Shown here: positions 26,810 to 37,709 of the stretch, one piece after another
Position numbering within the stretch: the first letter of the stretch is position 1
How the letters are laid out: the number at the start of each line of letters is the position of its first letter
Source: an uncultured Gammaproteobacteria bacterium
Lineage (GTDB): Bacteria; Pseudomonadota; Gammaproteobacteria; JAADHQ01
Length of the DNA: 64,000 nucleotides
Reading direction: 5' to 3'
Assembly (NCBI GenBank): GCA_947258655.1
Contig: CAMYJD010000001.1
Coordinates: 205,242 to 269,241, forward strand
Notes under the pieces: generated by a model
Databases searched by the model: none
The model's input: the letters and a program-made list of their open reading frames with translations, nothing else
Told to the model about the DNA's origin: nothing
Position numbers and translations under genes: made by a program

Positions 26810-27484
26810 CTAGACCCGCAATACGAGGACAACAATGGCTATGACGACCGCTATCGTAACTGCAACGGTAAGGTACAATGAACGTCTGCTGTTGTCGTCT
26901 CGCGTTCTGTCATGTAACGCATGTTCAATATCAGCCAATTCAGCGCGGTGGTCATGCCGATGCTTGCCGCTGGGGTGTTGGGCATTACGCACCGCCGTTC
27001 CTCCAGTCATTTCATCGTGCATTGCCGTGTCATTATCCATGGCAATGACAGTATCCCCTGCAGATGGTTGCGCTATCACTTGGTTACTGCCCGCTTCGCC
27101 TTCCTGCCCAATACCTTCGTCCGCGGCTGCGATCATCGCTTCCAGTCTGGTACTGCTCAGCATATCCGTTGTGTCCGGAGCTTTCTTGGGTGCGCCCTGG
27201 TCAGTATAGAATACTACCTGGTAACCACCTGCTGTAATAATATCACCTGAATGCAGGGTATGCCTGATCACCCTTTTACCATTGACGAAGGTTCCGTTCG
27301 TACTCCCCAGGTCTTCCACATGACTCGCCTTAAAAACAGTCACAATCTTTGCATGATGGGCGCTGACCGTCTCATCCTCCATCTGGACATCGTTATCTGC
27401 CGCTCTCCCCAGTGAAATTGTTCCATGATCCAGGACCCGTTCGTCAACCTGGAACGTTCCATGGTTTATTGTAATTTTATTCAT
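26810..27484 (-). CDS. FHA-domain protein with C-terminal transmembrane helix
   Basis: ISLGRAADNDVQMEDETVSAHHAKIVTVFKASHVEDLGSTNGTFVNGKRV; C-term LTVAVTIAVVIAIVVLVLRV. Confidence 0.92.
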   Translation of the reverse strand: MNKITINHGTFQVDERVLDHGTISLGRAADNDVQMEDETVSAHHAKIVTVFKASHVEDLGSTNGTFVNGKRVIRHTLHSGDIITAGGYQVVFYTDQGAPKKAPDTTDMLSSTRLEAMIAAADEGIGQEGEAGSNQVIAQPSAGDTVIAMDNDTAMHDEMTGGTAVRNAQHPSGKHRHDHRAELADIEHALHDRTRDDNSRRSLYLTVAVTIAVVIAIVVLVLRV

Positions 27485-27761
27485 ACCCCGCAACCCTCTA
27501 TAACGCGATCAATATAAACTCTTACAGGATTCCCTCCTTTAATTTTGTCGTCCGTTATTACACTACTGACATGCCCGCTATTGCTTCTCTGTATTTAACA
27601 TGGGAAATATTTATTATACAGATGATATTGTTATTCTAACTACATCCATTGCATTATATTATTATTATGTTTTCAGGCAAGTAGTCGACACCGGTGCCTT
27701 CATCAGTAATACTGCATTAATTCATAGACTAACACAATAAAACCATTTCGAAACTTTAATC

Positions 27762-28097
27762 ATGTTTTTTATCTGTAAATACGAGGATTTACTGGTAAAA
27801 CCAGTGCAAACCCACAATATCCATATCGATAATACTAATTACTCTATAATCCTGCTAGCCAGAGACGATCAAGTTTATGCCTTTCATAACAGGTGTCCGC
27901 ATACCTGGATAGGTCTTGATGCCGTCGACGACCAGATCATCAGCGGCTGCGGCCAATACCTGCAATGCTCAAGCCATTTCGCCCAGTTTCGCATGCAGGA
28001 TGGTTATTGTGTATATGGCCCGTGCAACGGACAATCATTATTACGGCTGGATGTCACAATAGAGGACGGCAACATTTTTCTGCTGCAGGCAGTGTAG
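27762..28097 (+). CDS. Rieske [2Fe-2S] ferredoxin-like protein
   Basis: NRCPHTWIGL ... LQCSSHFAQFRMQDGYCVYGPC (CxH ... CxxH). Confidence 0.9.
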   Translation: MFFICKYEDLLVKPVQTHNIHIDNTNYSIILLARDDQVYAFHNRCPHTWIGLDAVDDQIISGCGQYLQCSSHFAQFRMQDGYCVYGPCNGQSLLRLDVTIEDGNIFLLQAV

Positions 28098-28111
28098 ATG
28101 ATTCAAGTACT

Positions 28112-28768
28112 ATGAACAGCATTGAAAAACCATTACCGATATTGTATTCATTTCGCCGCTGCCCTTATGCGATGCGGGCACGCATGGCGATAAAATACAG
28201 CCAGGCAGTTGTTGAACTGCGCGAGGTCAAATTATCCGCCAAGCCACACAACCTGCTGGAAATTTCACCGAAGGGTACAGTCCCTGTACTACAGCTTGAA
28301 GATAGTACCGTGCTGGAAGAAAGCATTGATATTATCCATTGGGCATTGTCGGGATATGATCCGCAAGATTGGTCATTGAGTAAGGAAGATACGTTAAGGT
28401 CCAGGGCGATGGAGCTTGTGTGGGTAAATGATCACACTTTTAAACCACACCTGGACCATTACAAATATTCGGACCGCTACCCTGAGTGGCCTGCCATACA
28501 TTATCGCCAGCAGGGTATGGAATTTCTGCAATTACTTGAGAGCCATCTGCAACAAAACAGACATCTGCTGACTGATCATATTTCCATTGCAGATATATCG
28601 ATCTTTCCGTTCGTCAGGCAATTTGCCTATGTTGACAAGGAATGGTTCGAGTCCACAAACTTGCCTAGACTACAATCATGGCTGCATAAGTTCATAGATT
28701 CTTCATTATTTAAAATGATCATGGAAAAGTATCCACCTTGGGATGAGAATAATGCCGTGATTTTCTAG
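28112..28768 (+). CDS. Glutathione S-transferase family protein
   Basis: LYSFRRCPYAMRARMAI...GTVPVLQLEDSTVLEESIDIIHWAL. Confidence 0.92.
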   Translation: MNSIEKPLPILYSFRRCPYAMRARMAIKYSQAVVELREVKLSAKPHNLLEISPKGTVPVLQLEDSTVLEESIDIIHWALSGYDPQDWSLSKEDTLRSRAMELVWVNDHTFKPHLDHYKYSDRYPEWPAIHYRQQGMEFLQLLESHLQQNRHLLTDHISIADISIFPFVRQFAYVDKEWFESTNLPRLQSWLHKFIDSSLFKMIMEKYPPWDENNAVIF

Positions 28769-32255: not shown

Positions 32256-33047
32256 ATGTCAGAGAATCAAATCTGGATTGAACACATTGGCAATCAACCC
32301 TTGATAGCGACTGCTATCCATGCCGGGCATGAGGTTCGACACGAACTGTTACCGCTACTGGCACTGGACGATGCGGAACGTGCCAGGGAAGAAGACCCAT
32401 ACACAGACTATCTGGCCAAGGTAGTACCGACCTGGCTTGTCCCAACCCGCTCACGCTTTGAAGTAGACCTGAATCGTAGTCGCGACGAAGCTGTATACAC
32501 AGAGCCTGAAATGGCCTGGGGGATGCACCTGTGGAAGGAACCACTGCAAAAGGATGAAATAGCTGATTCCCTGAAGGAATATGACAATTTTTATGACGAA
32601 CTGCGTGAATTACTCGATAAGATGGTCGACCACTTCGGGCATATCGTCATCCTGGATTTACATGCCTATAATTATCGGCGTTCGGGCCCTGAGCACGAGC
32701 CTGCCGACCCTGCTACCAATCCCGAAGTCAATGTAGGCACCGGCACCATGCTGGACAGGGAACGTTGCCTTCCATTTATCAAACGTTTTATGTCTGACCT
32801 GAGAAATTACAATTTTATGGGCCGGCATCTGGATGTTCGTGAGAATGTAAAATTCAAGGGCCGGCAACTTGCCGAATGGATTCATAATAATTACCATGAC
32901 AGTATTTGTGTACTGTCAATCGAATTCAAGAAATTCTATATGGATGAATGGAGCGGCATTGGCGATATAGAGCAGATACAGGCCATCCGTGATGCACTGC
33001 AGTCCACTATACCGGGTATTCTACAGGAATTAAAAAAATTAGAATAA
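32256..33047 (+). CDS. N-formylglutamate amidohydrolase family protein
   Basis: AIHAGHEVRHELLPLLALDDAERAREEDPYTDYLA...VEVDLNR-like and HIVILDLHAYNYRR motifs. Confidence 0.9.
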   Translation: MSENQIWIEHIGNQPLIATAIHAGHEVRHELLPLLALDDAERAREEDPYTDYLAKVVPTWLVPTRSRFEVDLNRSRDEAVYTEPEMAWGMHLWKEPLQKDEIADSLKEYDNFYDELRELLDKMVDHFGHIVILDLHAYNYRRSGPEHEPADPATNPEVNVGTGTMLDRERCLPFIKRFMSDLRNYNFMGRHLDVRENVKFKGRQLAEWIHNNYHDSICVLSIEFKKFYMDEWSGIGDIEQIQAIRDALQSTIPGILQELKKLE

Positions 33048-33054
33048 CATCCCA

Positions 33055-34932
33055 ATGGCATATATCAGTCGTGACAATCTGGAAACCATCATACAATCAT
33101 TGCAGGGAAATATACCGCTACGTCTACAATTACCAAACGACGGACGCATTCATATCGACCGGCAATTGCCTTTCCTGATTGTATATCGTCGCCCCTGCGC
33201 GCATACTGACCTGGGCACCGAACGCCTGGTCCTTGGTGAAGCTGCATATATTATTGCTGACGACACTGCAGAACATACAGAAGAACTCTCCCATCTTATA
33301 AGCGATATTCTTACGGTACAGAAGAATGTCTTCGGAGCCTGCCTGCTACTCGAAATATGGTCCGGTCCTGAGATTACCGATGAATCGCGGCAACCGGGTT
33401 TTCATATATACGCTCCCACGCACGGCGCATCGAATTCGTTTCTGGAATCCATGGAAAATGCTCTGCTAGGTATCAGTATTAATAAACAGAATCCATCGGT
33501 ATCAATCAGCTATCGCAGTCAGGTAACACCAACCTCTTTCGTGACGCTGTTAACGGACGAACAGATCCGGCAATTGAACTGCCTGACTATTGGCCTGGAA
33601 ATCGCGCCTATCTATCGTGATTTCAGCACTGGCACACTACTGCCATTTCGCCTGCACAAGCTACACCACAAACTTGCACGTGCGCTCAAACGCAGCCTGT
33701 ACTCCTTTGTACACGAGTGCACTCCGCTACGCCCCACTCATTTCCATGAACTCGGACGGCGTTTCATGACCGACCCTGTTTATGAAGCCGATTCAAGATT
33801 GGCAGCTATCAGCTCCCGCTTTGACCTGTTATTGCATGTAACCCCGACCAATGCATTATCTGCGTGGCATGAATTTGAGAAACACGCCTATCAAAAAACA
33901 CCGGAATTTCTCTATAGACCCCGCCCTCTAGATCCCGGCATTGTCAAACGTGAGCTGTTTGCCATCGAGATCGAACAAATAGAGGACCCGACCCTGGCCT
34001 ATATGTTCTCCAAAAAACGCCAGGAACTGGATCGCCAACTGACATTGATAGCGGACCGCAATACACCTCGTTTTCTGCTGGGCAGTCGCCAACTGTTTGG
34101 TGACATAACAACAGACTTGCTTGCACTTGCGCAGCAAATACTCGATATCGAAAATAAACCCGGGCACGTGCGCGACCCTGACAACTACCTGGGCGCTGCA
34201 GATATTGCCCGCCACGCCAGAGATGAACTCAGTTATTACAGACAGCTAGATCCAACATTTTCGGCACAGGCAGAAGTCCGCGACGACATCACAGGCGTGC
34301 TCGTGTCAAAAGGAAATTTCCTGATTGGCACAGATGCCAGGGTTGTGCCTGCCAGACTCAAGGCCACGCTCGCACATGAAATAAGCACGCATGCACTGAC
34401 CTATTACAATGGTAGCCAGCAGCCATTCAAGGAATTACACGCCGGTATGGCCGGTTACGAATCCATGCAAGAAGGCCTGGCTGTGTTGAATGAATACCTG
34501 GTGGGCGGGCTGGATTTTATGCGCATGCGCTTGCTGGCCTGCCGTGTACTTGCCGTACAGATGATAACCGACGGCGCCAGTTTTATAGACACCTTCAGAC
34601 AACTGCACCAGGAATACCATGTTGCACCCTACACAGCCTTTACCATCGCGATGCGTGTGTTTCGTGGCGGTGGTTACACCAAGGACATGGTGTATTTACT
34701 GGGTCTGCAGAATATTCTCGACTACATAGCCGAAGGCGGCGACCTGCACAGGCTTTATGTCGGCAAAATTGCCTATGAATACAGACACGTTATCGAGGAA
34801 TTACATTTACGCCGGGTTATCACTGAAGCGTCGTTATTACCAAGGTTCCTGGATGATGAGGATAGCAAAGGACGGCTGCAAAAGCTGCAACAGGGCATCA
34901 CAGTGCTTGAGCTTGTACAGGAAATACAATAA
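33055..34932 (+). CDS. DUF1704/QEGLA-motif (MATCAP-like) zinc metallopeptidase
   Basis: LAHEISTHALTYYNGSQQPF (HExxxH) and ESMQEGLAVLNEYLVGG (QEGLA). Confidence 0.93.
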   Translation: MAYISRDNLETIIQSLQGNIPLRLQLPNDGRIHIDRQLPFLIVYRRPCAHTDLGTERLVLGEAAYIIADDTAEHTEELSHLISDILTVQKNVFGACLLLEIWSGPEITDESRQPGFHIYAPTHGASNSFLESMENALLGISINKQNPSVSISYRSQVTPTSFVTLLTDEQIRQLNCLTIGLEIAPIYRDFSTGTLLPFRLHKLHHKLARALKRSLYSFVHECTPLRPTHFHELGRRFMTDPVYEADSRLAAISSRFDLLLHVTPTNALSAWHEFEKHAYQKTPEFLYRPRPLDPGIVKRELFAIEIEQIEDPTLAYMFSKKRQELDRQLTLIADRNTPRFLLGSRQLFGDITTDLLALAQQILDIENKPGHVRDPDNYLGAADIARHARDELSYYRQLDPTFSAQAEVRDDITGVLVSKGNFLIGTDARVVPARLKATLAHEISTHALTYYNGSQQPFKELHAGMAGYESMQEGLAVLNEYLVGGLDFMRMRLLACRVLAVQMITDGASFIDTFRQLHQEYHVAPYTAFTIAMRVFRGGGYTKDMVYLLGLQNILDYIAEGGDLHRLYVGKIAYEYRHVIEELHLRRVITEASLLPRFLDDEDSKGRLQKLQQGITVLELVQEIQ

Positions 34933-35984
34933 TGCGCCTGGCCATGGTTGTAAACAACATCGACACAGAACGACCTGATTATACCACCACCTATCTGGCG
35001 ATGGAGGCAACCAATAGAGGGCATGAGGTCTGGTATATAGACTTGTCCGACTTTATCTATGATCCCGATGAAAAGGTACATGCGCATGCATGCAGGGTGC
35101 CGATGCGGAAATTTCGTTCATATCGGGTCTATCTGGATACCCTGCGCAGCGAGTCTGCCATTAGGGAACGGATTACAGTAGAAGATCTCGATATATTGTT
35201 GCTACGCAATGATCCGGCTGAAGATGTCATTGATCGCCCCTGGGCACGACTGGCAAGTATCAATTTCGGTCGTCTGGCGGTCCGCCACGGGCTAATCGTA
35301 CTAAACGATCCTGTCGGCCTGACCCAGGCCATCAATAAGATGTATCTGCAATATTTTCCTAAAAAAATACGGCCGCGCACATTAATCAGCAGAAACAAGG
35401 ACGAGATCAAGGCATTCATTGAGGCACAGGGTGGCTATGCTGTCCTCAAGCCCATTGCCGGATCGGGTGGTCATAATGTATTCCTGGTACAACCCGCAGA
35501 TAAAGCCAACATCAATCAAATGATAGAGGCCATTAGACGTGAAGGTTATGTTATTGCCCAGGAATACCTGCCTGAAGCAATCCACGGAGATACCCGTCTG
35601 TTTATGATGAATGGCAAACCTCTGCGTTGCAATGGCAAATATGCCGCGATTCAGCGTGTACGTAAACCGGGTGATGCGGATATGCGCAGTAATATAACCG
35701 CGGGGGCTACTGCCGAAGCCGCACATATCAACGAAACCATGCTTGATTTGGCCAATAAAGTCAGTCCTAAACTGATCCACGATGGTATATTCCTGGCCGG
35801 TCTGGATATTGTCGGTGACAAGATCATGGAAATAAACATGTTCAGCCCGGGTGGTATAGACAACGCCAGCGAACTGGAAGGTTGCAATTTCAACCGCGAA
35901 ATCATTCTTGCCCTGGAACACAAGGTTAACTACAGACGCCAGCATGGCGACAAAATTGATAACAGGGAACTGGCTTGCATCTGA
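34932..35984 (+). CDS. ATP-grasp (glutathione synthetase-like) ligase
   Basis: YAVLKPIAGSGGHNVFLV; VIAQEYLPEAIHGDTRLFMMNGKPL; GLDIVGDKIMEINMFSPGGI; TAATG stop/start overlap with the preceding gene. Confidence 0.93.
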   Translation: MRLAMVVNNIDTERPDYTTTYLAMEATNRGHEVWYIDLSDFIYDPDEKVHAHACRVPMRKFRSYRVYLDTLRSESAIRERITVEDLDILLLRNDPAEDVIDRPWARLASINFGRLAVRHGLIVLNDPVGLTQAINKMYLQYFPKKIRPRTLISRNKDEIKAFIEAQGGYAVLKPIAGSGGHNVFLVQPADKANINQMIEAIRREGYVIAQEYLPEAIHGDTRLFMMNGKPLRCNGKYAAIQRVRKPGDADMRSNITAGATAEAAHINETMLDLANKVSPKLIHDGIFLAGLDIVGDKIMEINMFSPGGIDNASELEGCNFNREIILALEHKVNYRRQHGDKIDNRELACI

Positions 35985-37397: not shown

Positions 37398-37709
37398 ATG
37401 ACTGGTATTACTGACAAAATTCAGGGAGACGATGTTCTCGAACTGGAGATTACACATGGGGCGCTCACACTGGGTCGTGGAGAACACAATAGTTGTACGT
37501 TTGCATGCGATTCGGTTAGCACACACCACGCCCGGATCACTACATTATTCAATGCCTCTTATATAGAGGATCTCGACAGTACCAATGGCACCTATGTCAA
37601 TGGTAAAAGGATCCACAAGCATACCCTACATGATGGTGATACAGTGATGCTGGGGGAACAACTGATCAGGGTTGTCAAAACCGATATCGATATAACATCA
37701 GTAGCATGA
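37398..37709 (+). CDS. Small FHA-domain protein
   Basis: LTLGRGEHNSCTFACDSVSTHHARITTLFNASYIEDLDSTNGTYVNGKRI. Confidence 0.92.
   Translation: MTGITDKIQGDDVLELEITHGALTLGRGEHNSCTFACDSVSTHHARITTLFNASYIEDLDSTNGTYVNGKRIHKHTLHDGDTVMLGEQLIRVVKTDIDITSVA

What the first reader, a model, noticed from the sequence alone, without database searches (positions are those of the whole stretch)
32256..35984. Three-gene operon: N-formylglutamate amidohydrolase, QEGLA/MATCAP-like zincin and ATP-grasp ligase, possibly a ligate-and-trim peptide modification system
Seen: the three genes are nearly fused (7-bp gap, then a TAATG stop/start overlap), with an HExxxH motif (34375-34392) and QEGLA in the middle gene and a glutathione-synthetase-like ATP-grasp in the third. 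Known: the DUF1704 family (PF08014) includes eukaryotic MATCAP tubulin carboxypeptidases, and tubulin tyrosine ligase is itself an ATP-grasp enzyme. Bacterial members carry only an indirect name (flavohemoglobin expression-modulating QEGLA protein). Inference: the operon may encode addition and removal of a C-terminal amino acid on a peptide or protein, or assemble a small formyl- or glutamate-containing peptide, with the amidohydrolase releasing or deblocking it. The substrate is unknown.
Basis: partly seen in the sequence, partly recalled or inferred. Interest (0 to 1): 0.78.

Follow-up and report, generated by a model that had tools for sequence, protein, structure and literature searches.

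The report
Conserved peptide-ligase and double-peptidase operon
Three neighbouring genes, one that joins amino acids and two that probably split them off, travel together in at least seven bacterial phyla and look like a make-and-break system for an unknown small glutamate-containing molecule, which one published low-salt experiment links to life in dilute water.

Summary
In detail: three intact genes, 7-bp gap, TAATG overlap, HExxxH where stated. The trio is a real, ancient unit. Among 80 loci nearest to the long form of the middle gene, 62 have room on both sides, and 56 of these carry FGase, MATCAP-like zincin and ATP-grasp together, 54 in the same simple order, across at least seven phyla; the three proteins' distances correlate (r 0.82-0.87). 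All predicted catalytic residues are kept.

The middle protein's first ~225 residues are a degenerate FGase domain (catalytic His replaced, usually by Trp) in front of the zincin, and Photobacterium and some other Gammaproteobacteria carry a true FGase-zincin fusion beside the ligase. The ligase is a separate clade beside glutathione synthetase, not tubulin-tyrosine-ligase-like; the genome has its own GshB and lacks urocanase.

Published RNA-seq shows two adjacent Photobacterium damselae genes with the names of the fused version, up 27.5- and 38.4-fold at low salt.

Best reading (0.5): a cytoplasmic make-and-break cycle on a small, probably glutamyl, peptide, tied to hypo-osmotic adjustment. 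Substrate and direction are inferred. A protein C-terminus as target is less likely. I found no paper describing the trio.

The parts
32256..33047 (+). FGase-like amidohydrolase (PF05013), M14-carboxypeptidase-type fold, predicted active; the only PF05013 gene of the genome
   Evidence: AlphaFold model pLDDT 95 matches FGase 2q7s (TM 0.78) and more weakly M14 carboxypeptidases; H22, E45, E46, D71, N73, R74, D134, H136, E223 identical in 70 of 70 family members and H25 in 68
33055..33729 (+). N-terminal degenerate FGase domain of the middle protein (about residues 1-225), predicted catalytically dead
   Evidence: hhalign against the FGase family P=6.4e-6 over 165 colinear columns, controls 0.05-0.45; same order of helices and strands as the FGase model; FGase D134/H136 replaced by E100/W102 (E 85 of 86, W 72 of 86) and the H22...E45 segment missing
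33790..34929 (+). MATCAP/QEGLA zincin domain (PF08014), predicted metallo-carboxypeptidase
   Evidence: H441 E442 H446 E473 R497 R534 R537 K543 D544 Y547 identical in 86 of 86; model pLDDT 93 matches 7z6s human MATCAP (TM 0.69 on target, prob 1.0); profile match 7z5g E=9e-12
34375..34392 (+). HExxxH zinc motif (HEISTH, residues 441-446)
34468..34482 (+). QEGLA motif (residues 472-476), with the predicted third zinc ligand Glu473
34932..35984 (+). ATP-grasp amidoligase of the PRK12458 clade, sister to glutathione synthetase
   Evidence: own clade with support 100/100; K136 K173 R222 R242 R252 D292 E300 N302 shared with GshB

Best explanation
The operon encodes a cytoplasmic make-and-break cycle for a small peptide, most likely a glutamyl or gamma-glutamyl peptide. 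The ATP-grasp ligase activates a peptide carboxylate as an acyl phosphate and adds an amino acid (inferred from its GshB-sister position and kept catalytic residues). The zincin removes the C-terminal residue again (inferred from MATCAP, a proven carboxypeptidase family that also removes glutamates). The FGase, with an M14 exopeptidase-type fold, hydrolyses an N-acyl or amide bond of a glutamate and is positioned by pairing with the degenerate FGase domain in front of the zincin (inferred from the real fusion in relatives). Under low external salt the module is switched on to adjust the pool of this glutamate-derived solute (inferred from one RNA-seq study of a relative). Shown: conserved three-gene unit, degenerate domain, intact catalytic residues, separate ligase clade. 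Inferred: chemistry, substrate, direction, physiological role.
For: Unit: 56 of 62 loci with room on both sides have all three genes (54 adjacent in order by script; L076 and L103 by eye), no fourth gene recurs across lineages; distance correlations 0.83, 0.87, 0.82, none of 2000 permutations as high; in 291 genomes of the class, trio-type ligase and long zincin co-occur in 11, ligase alone 2, zincin alone 2 (Fisher 2e-16, inflated by relatedness). Fusion: FGase and zincin in one ORF beside a ligase in L034, L049 and Photobacterium L143, and fused without a nearby ligase in L035. Not glutathione or histidine metabolism: separate GshB on contig C6, no urocanase, HutG score 20 against 279. Not TTL-like: ligase clade 100/100 next to GshB. 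Osmotic link: PMC10308900 reports A0J47_RS17020 GshB up 38.4-fold and A0J47_RS17025 QEGLA up 27.5-fold at low salt, adjacent locus tags, and Photobacterium L143 shows that such a pair is ligase plus FGase-zincin fusion; in L154 a solo ligase of the Photobacterium-type clade lies in a row with CorA, an MscS channel, RimK and an AstE/AspA M14 hydrolase. Precedent for ligase plus protease on polyglutamate: RimK-RimB and RloABC, with hypo-osmotic phenotype (PMC12239564).
Against: No substrate, product or activity is known for any bacterial member. The low-salt data are from the fused Photobacterium-type version in another organism, whose own locus I could not fetch, and low salt changes many genes. 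The duplicated ligase and zincin arrays (L085, L103, L123) could mean linear biosynthesis of a longer peptide, not a cycle. The zincin is 17% identical to MATCAP over the aligned part, so carboxypeptidase activity is an extrapolation. The L154 array is a single case.
Confidence: 0.5

Rival explanations
1. Linear biosynthesis of a specialised peptide metabolite: ligase(s) build a di- or tripeptide, FGase removes an N-acyl protecting group, the zincin trims a C-terminal residue to give the final product.
For: Duplicated ligases or zincins in L036, L073, L074, L085, L091, L103, L123; GshB-clade ligases make small peptides (family knowledge); compact operon.
Against: No transporter, regulator, resistance or other tailoring gene is conserved around the trio; spread over many unrelated phyla suggests a general role.
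Confidence: 0.25
2. Reversible modification of a protein C-terminus or side chain (addition and removal of Glu or another residue), like tubulin tyrosination or RimK-RimB on ribosomal protein S6.
For: MATCAP/TMCP enzymes act on tubulin tails (PMC10499314); short-form DUF1704 lies beside RimK and the RimB-type PF05618 protease in one lineage (L011, L014, L016).
Against: The trio ligase is in the GshB part of the superfamily, not TTL or RimK; no target gene is linked; the RimK-linked DUF1704 is the other, short form and only one family has it.
Confidence: 0.15
3. Catabolic salvage of glutathione-like or N-acyl-glutamyl peptides, with the ligase re-making the useful peptide.
For: Two hydrolases to one ligase; FGase family is known from N-formylglutamate breakdown (family knowledge).
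Against: No urocanase or second FGase in the genome and no conserved uptake system.
Confidence: 0.07

Closest known systems
Glutathione synthetase GshB (PRK05246/TIGR01380; 1GSA)
   Same: Fold, ATP/Mg residues and the conserved arginines (R222, R242, R252 here)
   Different: Separate clade (100/100), below the GshB equivalog cut-offs, 12 positions conserved but different, among them SPT to SPG after the Mg-binding Asn; the genome has its own GshB
Human MATCAP/TMCP tubulin carboxypeptidases (PF08014; 7z5g, 7z6s)
   Same: HExxxH with a later Glu ligand, N-x-x-x-Q-P and K-D-x-x-Y-L motifs; TM 0.69 on the target
   Different: 17% identity; carries a degenerate FGase domain in front; operon with a ligase and an active FGase
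N-formylglutamate amidohydrolase HutG (TIGR02017; 2q7s)
   Same: Fold and family PF05013
   Different: HutG equivalog score 20 against a cut-off of 279; no urocanase in the genome
RimK-RimB and RloA-RloB-RloC ligase/protease modules
   Same: ATP-grasp ligase coupled with a dedicated protease; polyglutamate cleavage and hypo-osmotic phenotype reported for Rlo (PMC12239564)
   Different: Their proteases are retropepsin-like, here a zincin and an M14-type fold; RloA is secreted, whereas I see no signal peptide by eye here; different ligase clade

Membership tests
Glutathione synthetase (GshB) equivalog | Score above the GshB equivalog cut-offs | tested here: not met
   203.6 against 272 and 193.9 against 299 bits
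Glutathione synthetase (GshB) equivalog | Groups with GshB in a tree | tested here: not met
   53 trio ligases form one side of a branch at 100/100; 12 GshB form another
PRK12458 subfamily (NF009110) | Score above curated cut-off 408 | tested here: met
   417.9 bits
ATP-grasp amidoligase | ATP/Mg-binding Lys, Asp, Glu, Asn present | tested here: met
   K173 89/89, K136 87/89, E300 84/89, N302 85/89; D292 at 90% or more of the ligases and in at least 10 of 12 GshB
PF08014 MATCAP/DUF1704 | Profile score and HExxxH plus Glu zinc site | tested here: met
   E=3e-81; residues 86/86; MATCAP fold
PF08014 MATCAP/DUF1704 | C-terminal carboxypeptidase activity | not testable with these tools
   Known for human TMCPs only (PMC10499314)
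TIGR02421 QEGLA | Score above cut-off 338.65 | tested here: not met
   310.2 bits: related but outside that equivalog
HutG N-formylglutamate deformylase | Score above cut-off 278.75 and a histidine-degradation pathway | tested here: not met
   20.4 bits; no urocanase
PF05013 FGase | Profile score, fold and catalytic residues | tested here: met
Tubulin tyrosine ligase-like ligase | Closest to TTL or RimK and not to GshB | tested here: not met
   Nearest solved relatives are GshB then RimK, no TTL hit; tree next to GshB, TTL itself not included
Anti-phage defence system | Match to PADLOC-DB | tested here: not met
   No match for any of the three

The most novel reading that the evidence does not exclude
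A widespread, unnamed bacterial pathway makes and degrades a small glutamyl peptide as part of adaptation to low osmolarity, using an active FGase paired with a dead FGase domain that carries a MATCAP-type carboxypeptidase; the eukaryotic tubulin carboxypeptidases would come from the protease of such prokaryotic ligase/carboxypeptidase systems.
Probability: 0.3. Interest if true: 0.8.

Novelty: new variant of a known kind. Interest (0 to 1): 0.62.

Why it matters
Genome annotation calls these genes N-formylglutamate amidohydrolase, flavohemoglobin expression-modulating protein and glutathione synthetase, all three probably misleading here. If the reading is right, a general metabolite pathway present in Sinorhizobium, Planctomycetota, Bacteroidota and many Gammaproteobacteria has been hidden behind those names, and a published low-salt response in Photobacterium gets a concrete enzymatic candidate that can be tested.

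Tried and rejected
Glutathione synthesis by the ligase: rejected, separate GshB and separate clade. Histidine degradation: rejected, no urocanase. Defence system: no PADLOC match. RiPP with a precursor peptide: 196 small ORFs within 600 bp of 60 trios gave only matches among close relatives. Fourth partner gene: recurring neighbours are lineage-specific (Pontibacter, Parapedobacter) or common families such as PAS/GGDEF sensors and ABC ATPases; BrkB, the downstream gene here, was found in only a few loci. Short-form DUF1704 as part of the same system: not generally, only one lineage has an adjacent ATP-grasp. Literature: no paper names DUF1704 with ATP-grasp or QEGLA with the amidohydrolase; one paper names QEGLA at all; guessed S. 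meliloti locus tags gave nothing useful. Promoter and terminator scans gave no more than shuffles. My guess at the PMC id of the Iyer et al. 2009 amidoligase survey opened an unrelated paper, so I cannot exclude that it mentions this neighbourhood.

Full report
OBSERVATION. Pfam and NCBIfam give PF05013, PF08014 and GSH-S_ATP/PRK12458. None of the three has an obvious signal peptide by eye, so I take them as cytoplasmic.

CONSERVATION. PF08014 comes in two forms in the class: short (mostly 430-480 aa open frame, best Pfam scores) and long (mostly 600-700 aa), to which the window belongs. A scan of GTDB genomes with an alignment of the long form gave 80 loci, from Gamma- and Alphaproteobacteria, Bacteroidota (Pontibacter, Sphingobacterium, Parapedobacter), Balneolota, Planctomycetota, Acidobacteriota, Gemmatimonadota and Thermodesulfobacteriota. 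Plasmid records add Sinorhizobium (79 of 127), Rhizobium, Ensifer, Shinella and Aminobacter, with the annotated trio in Aminobacter, Shinella and S. meliloti. Of 62 loci with room on both sides, 54 were scored by script as having an upstream FGase and a downstream ATP-grasp on the same strand; two more (L076 with an over-extended FGase ORF, L103 with a doubled zincin) have all three. These loci were chosen as the best matches to the long form, so they do not sample all PF08014 genes. The converse test was run on 291 genomes of the class: trio-type ligases (E below 1e-100, next match 1e-72) occur in 13 genomes, 11 of which have a long zincin; two zincin genomes lack the ligase, one of them with a broken gene. 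Three other genomes of the window's genus lack PF08014, so presence is patchy. Pairwise distances of the three proteins over 52 loci correlate at 0.82-0.87 against a permutation maximum of 0.25; this shows joint inheritance, and part of it is simply shared species history.

A DEAD FGASE DOMAIN IN THE MIDDLE PROTEIN. Residues 1-245 matched no Pfam or NCBIfam model. Profile-profile comparison with the FGase family gives P=6.4e-6 over 165 colinear columns, with unrelated pairs at 0.05-0.45; with query and template exchanged the value is weaker, 5.9e-4. The predicted structures have the same order of elements, and Foldseek puts nucleoside phosphorylases and zinc exopeptidases behind MATCAP and M32 carboxypeptidases for this model, consistent with an FGase-like fold in the N-terminal half, though the matched range is not shown. 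The FGase catalytic Asp-x-His is replaced by Glu-x-Trp in most members and the first zinc-site segment is absent. In L034, L035, L049 and Photobacterium L143, a complete FGase with all catalytic motifs occupies this very position in one ORF with the zincin. The simplest history is an ancestral FGase-zincin fusion, a second FGase copy as a separate gene, and decay of the fused copy; the reverse order of events is possible. Pairing of the live FGase with its dead homologue is an inference.

CATALYTIC PARTS. FGase: H22, E45, E46, D71, N73, R74, D134, H136 and E223 are invariant in 70 sequences, H25 in 68; the model matches FGase 2q7s and, more weakly, M14 carboxypeptidases. Zincin: H441, E442, H446 and E473 and a further set of residues (N452, Q456, R497, R534, R537, K543, D544, Y547) are invariant in 86; the model matches human MATCAP 7z6s. 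Ligase: residues for ATP and Mg and the arginines shared with GshB are kept, while 12 positions are conserved differently. The tree puts 53 trio ligases on one branch (100/100) beside GshB; the Photobacterium-type ligases form a third group, where long branches make the exact join uncertain. The window's genome has its own GshB and just one PF05013 gene, and no urocanase.

ROLE. In Photobacterium damselae, adjacent locus tags A0J47_RS17020 (GshB) and RS17025 (QEGLA) rise 38.4- and 27.5-fold at 1% NaCl (PMC10308900). In Photobacterium sp. DA100 such a pair is the ligase followed by the FGase-zincin fusion. I could not fetch the P. damselae locus itself, so that these two genes are this pair is an inference from a congener. 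In L154 a ligase of the Photobacterium-type clade is followed by CorA, MscS, RimK and an AstE/AspA hydrolase. RimK-RimB and RloABC show that bacteria pair ATP-grasp ligases with proteases on polyglutamate, and Rlo mutants fail in hypo-osmotic media (PMC12239564). Together these make a glutamyl product and an osmotic role the best guess, not more.

VERDICT. The unit, the dead domain and the separate ligase clade are shown by sequence and structure prediction. The reaction and its purpose are inferred. I rate the system a new variant of the known kind 'ATP-grasp ligase with dedicated peptidase'.

Noticed in passing
L011:2680-4085, L014:2707-4043, L016:21-1265: Short-form DUF1704 gene beside RimK and a RimB-type PF05618 protease; all three loci are from one family.
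   Followed up: partly
L154:7020-11991: Solo ligase of the Photobacterium-type clade in a row with CorA, MscS channel, RimK and AstE/AspA hydrolase, a possible hypo-osmotic gene set.
   Followed up: partly
L085:7856-15832, L103:6238-14330, L123:7247-15120: Planctomycetota carry expanded arrays with two zincins and three ligases.
   Followed up: no
G030:C45:2571-3666 (in L048): A long-form zincin broken by several stop codons: the system can decay.
   Followed up: no
window 26810-27493 and 37398-37709: Two ORFs that look by eye like FHA-domain proteins on either side of the trio; not searched.
   Followed up: no
window 27762-28768: ORF that looks by eye like a Rieske-type protein, overlapping an ORF whose second part looks like a glutathione S-transferase; not searched.
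   Followed up: no
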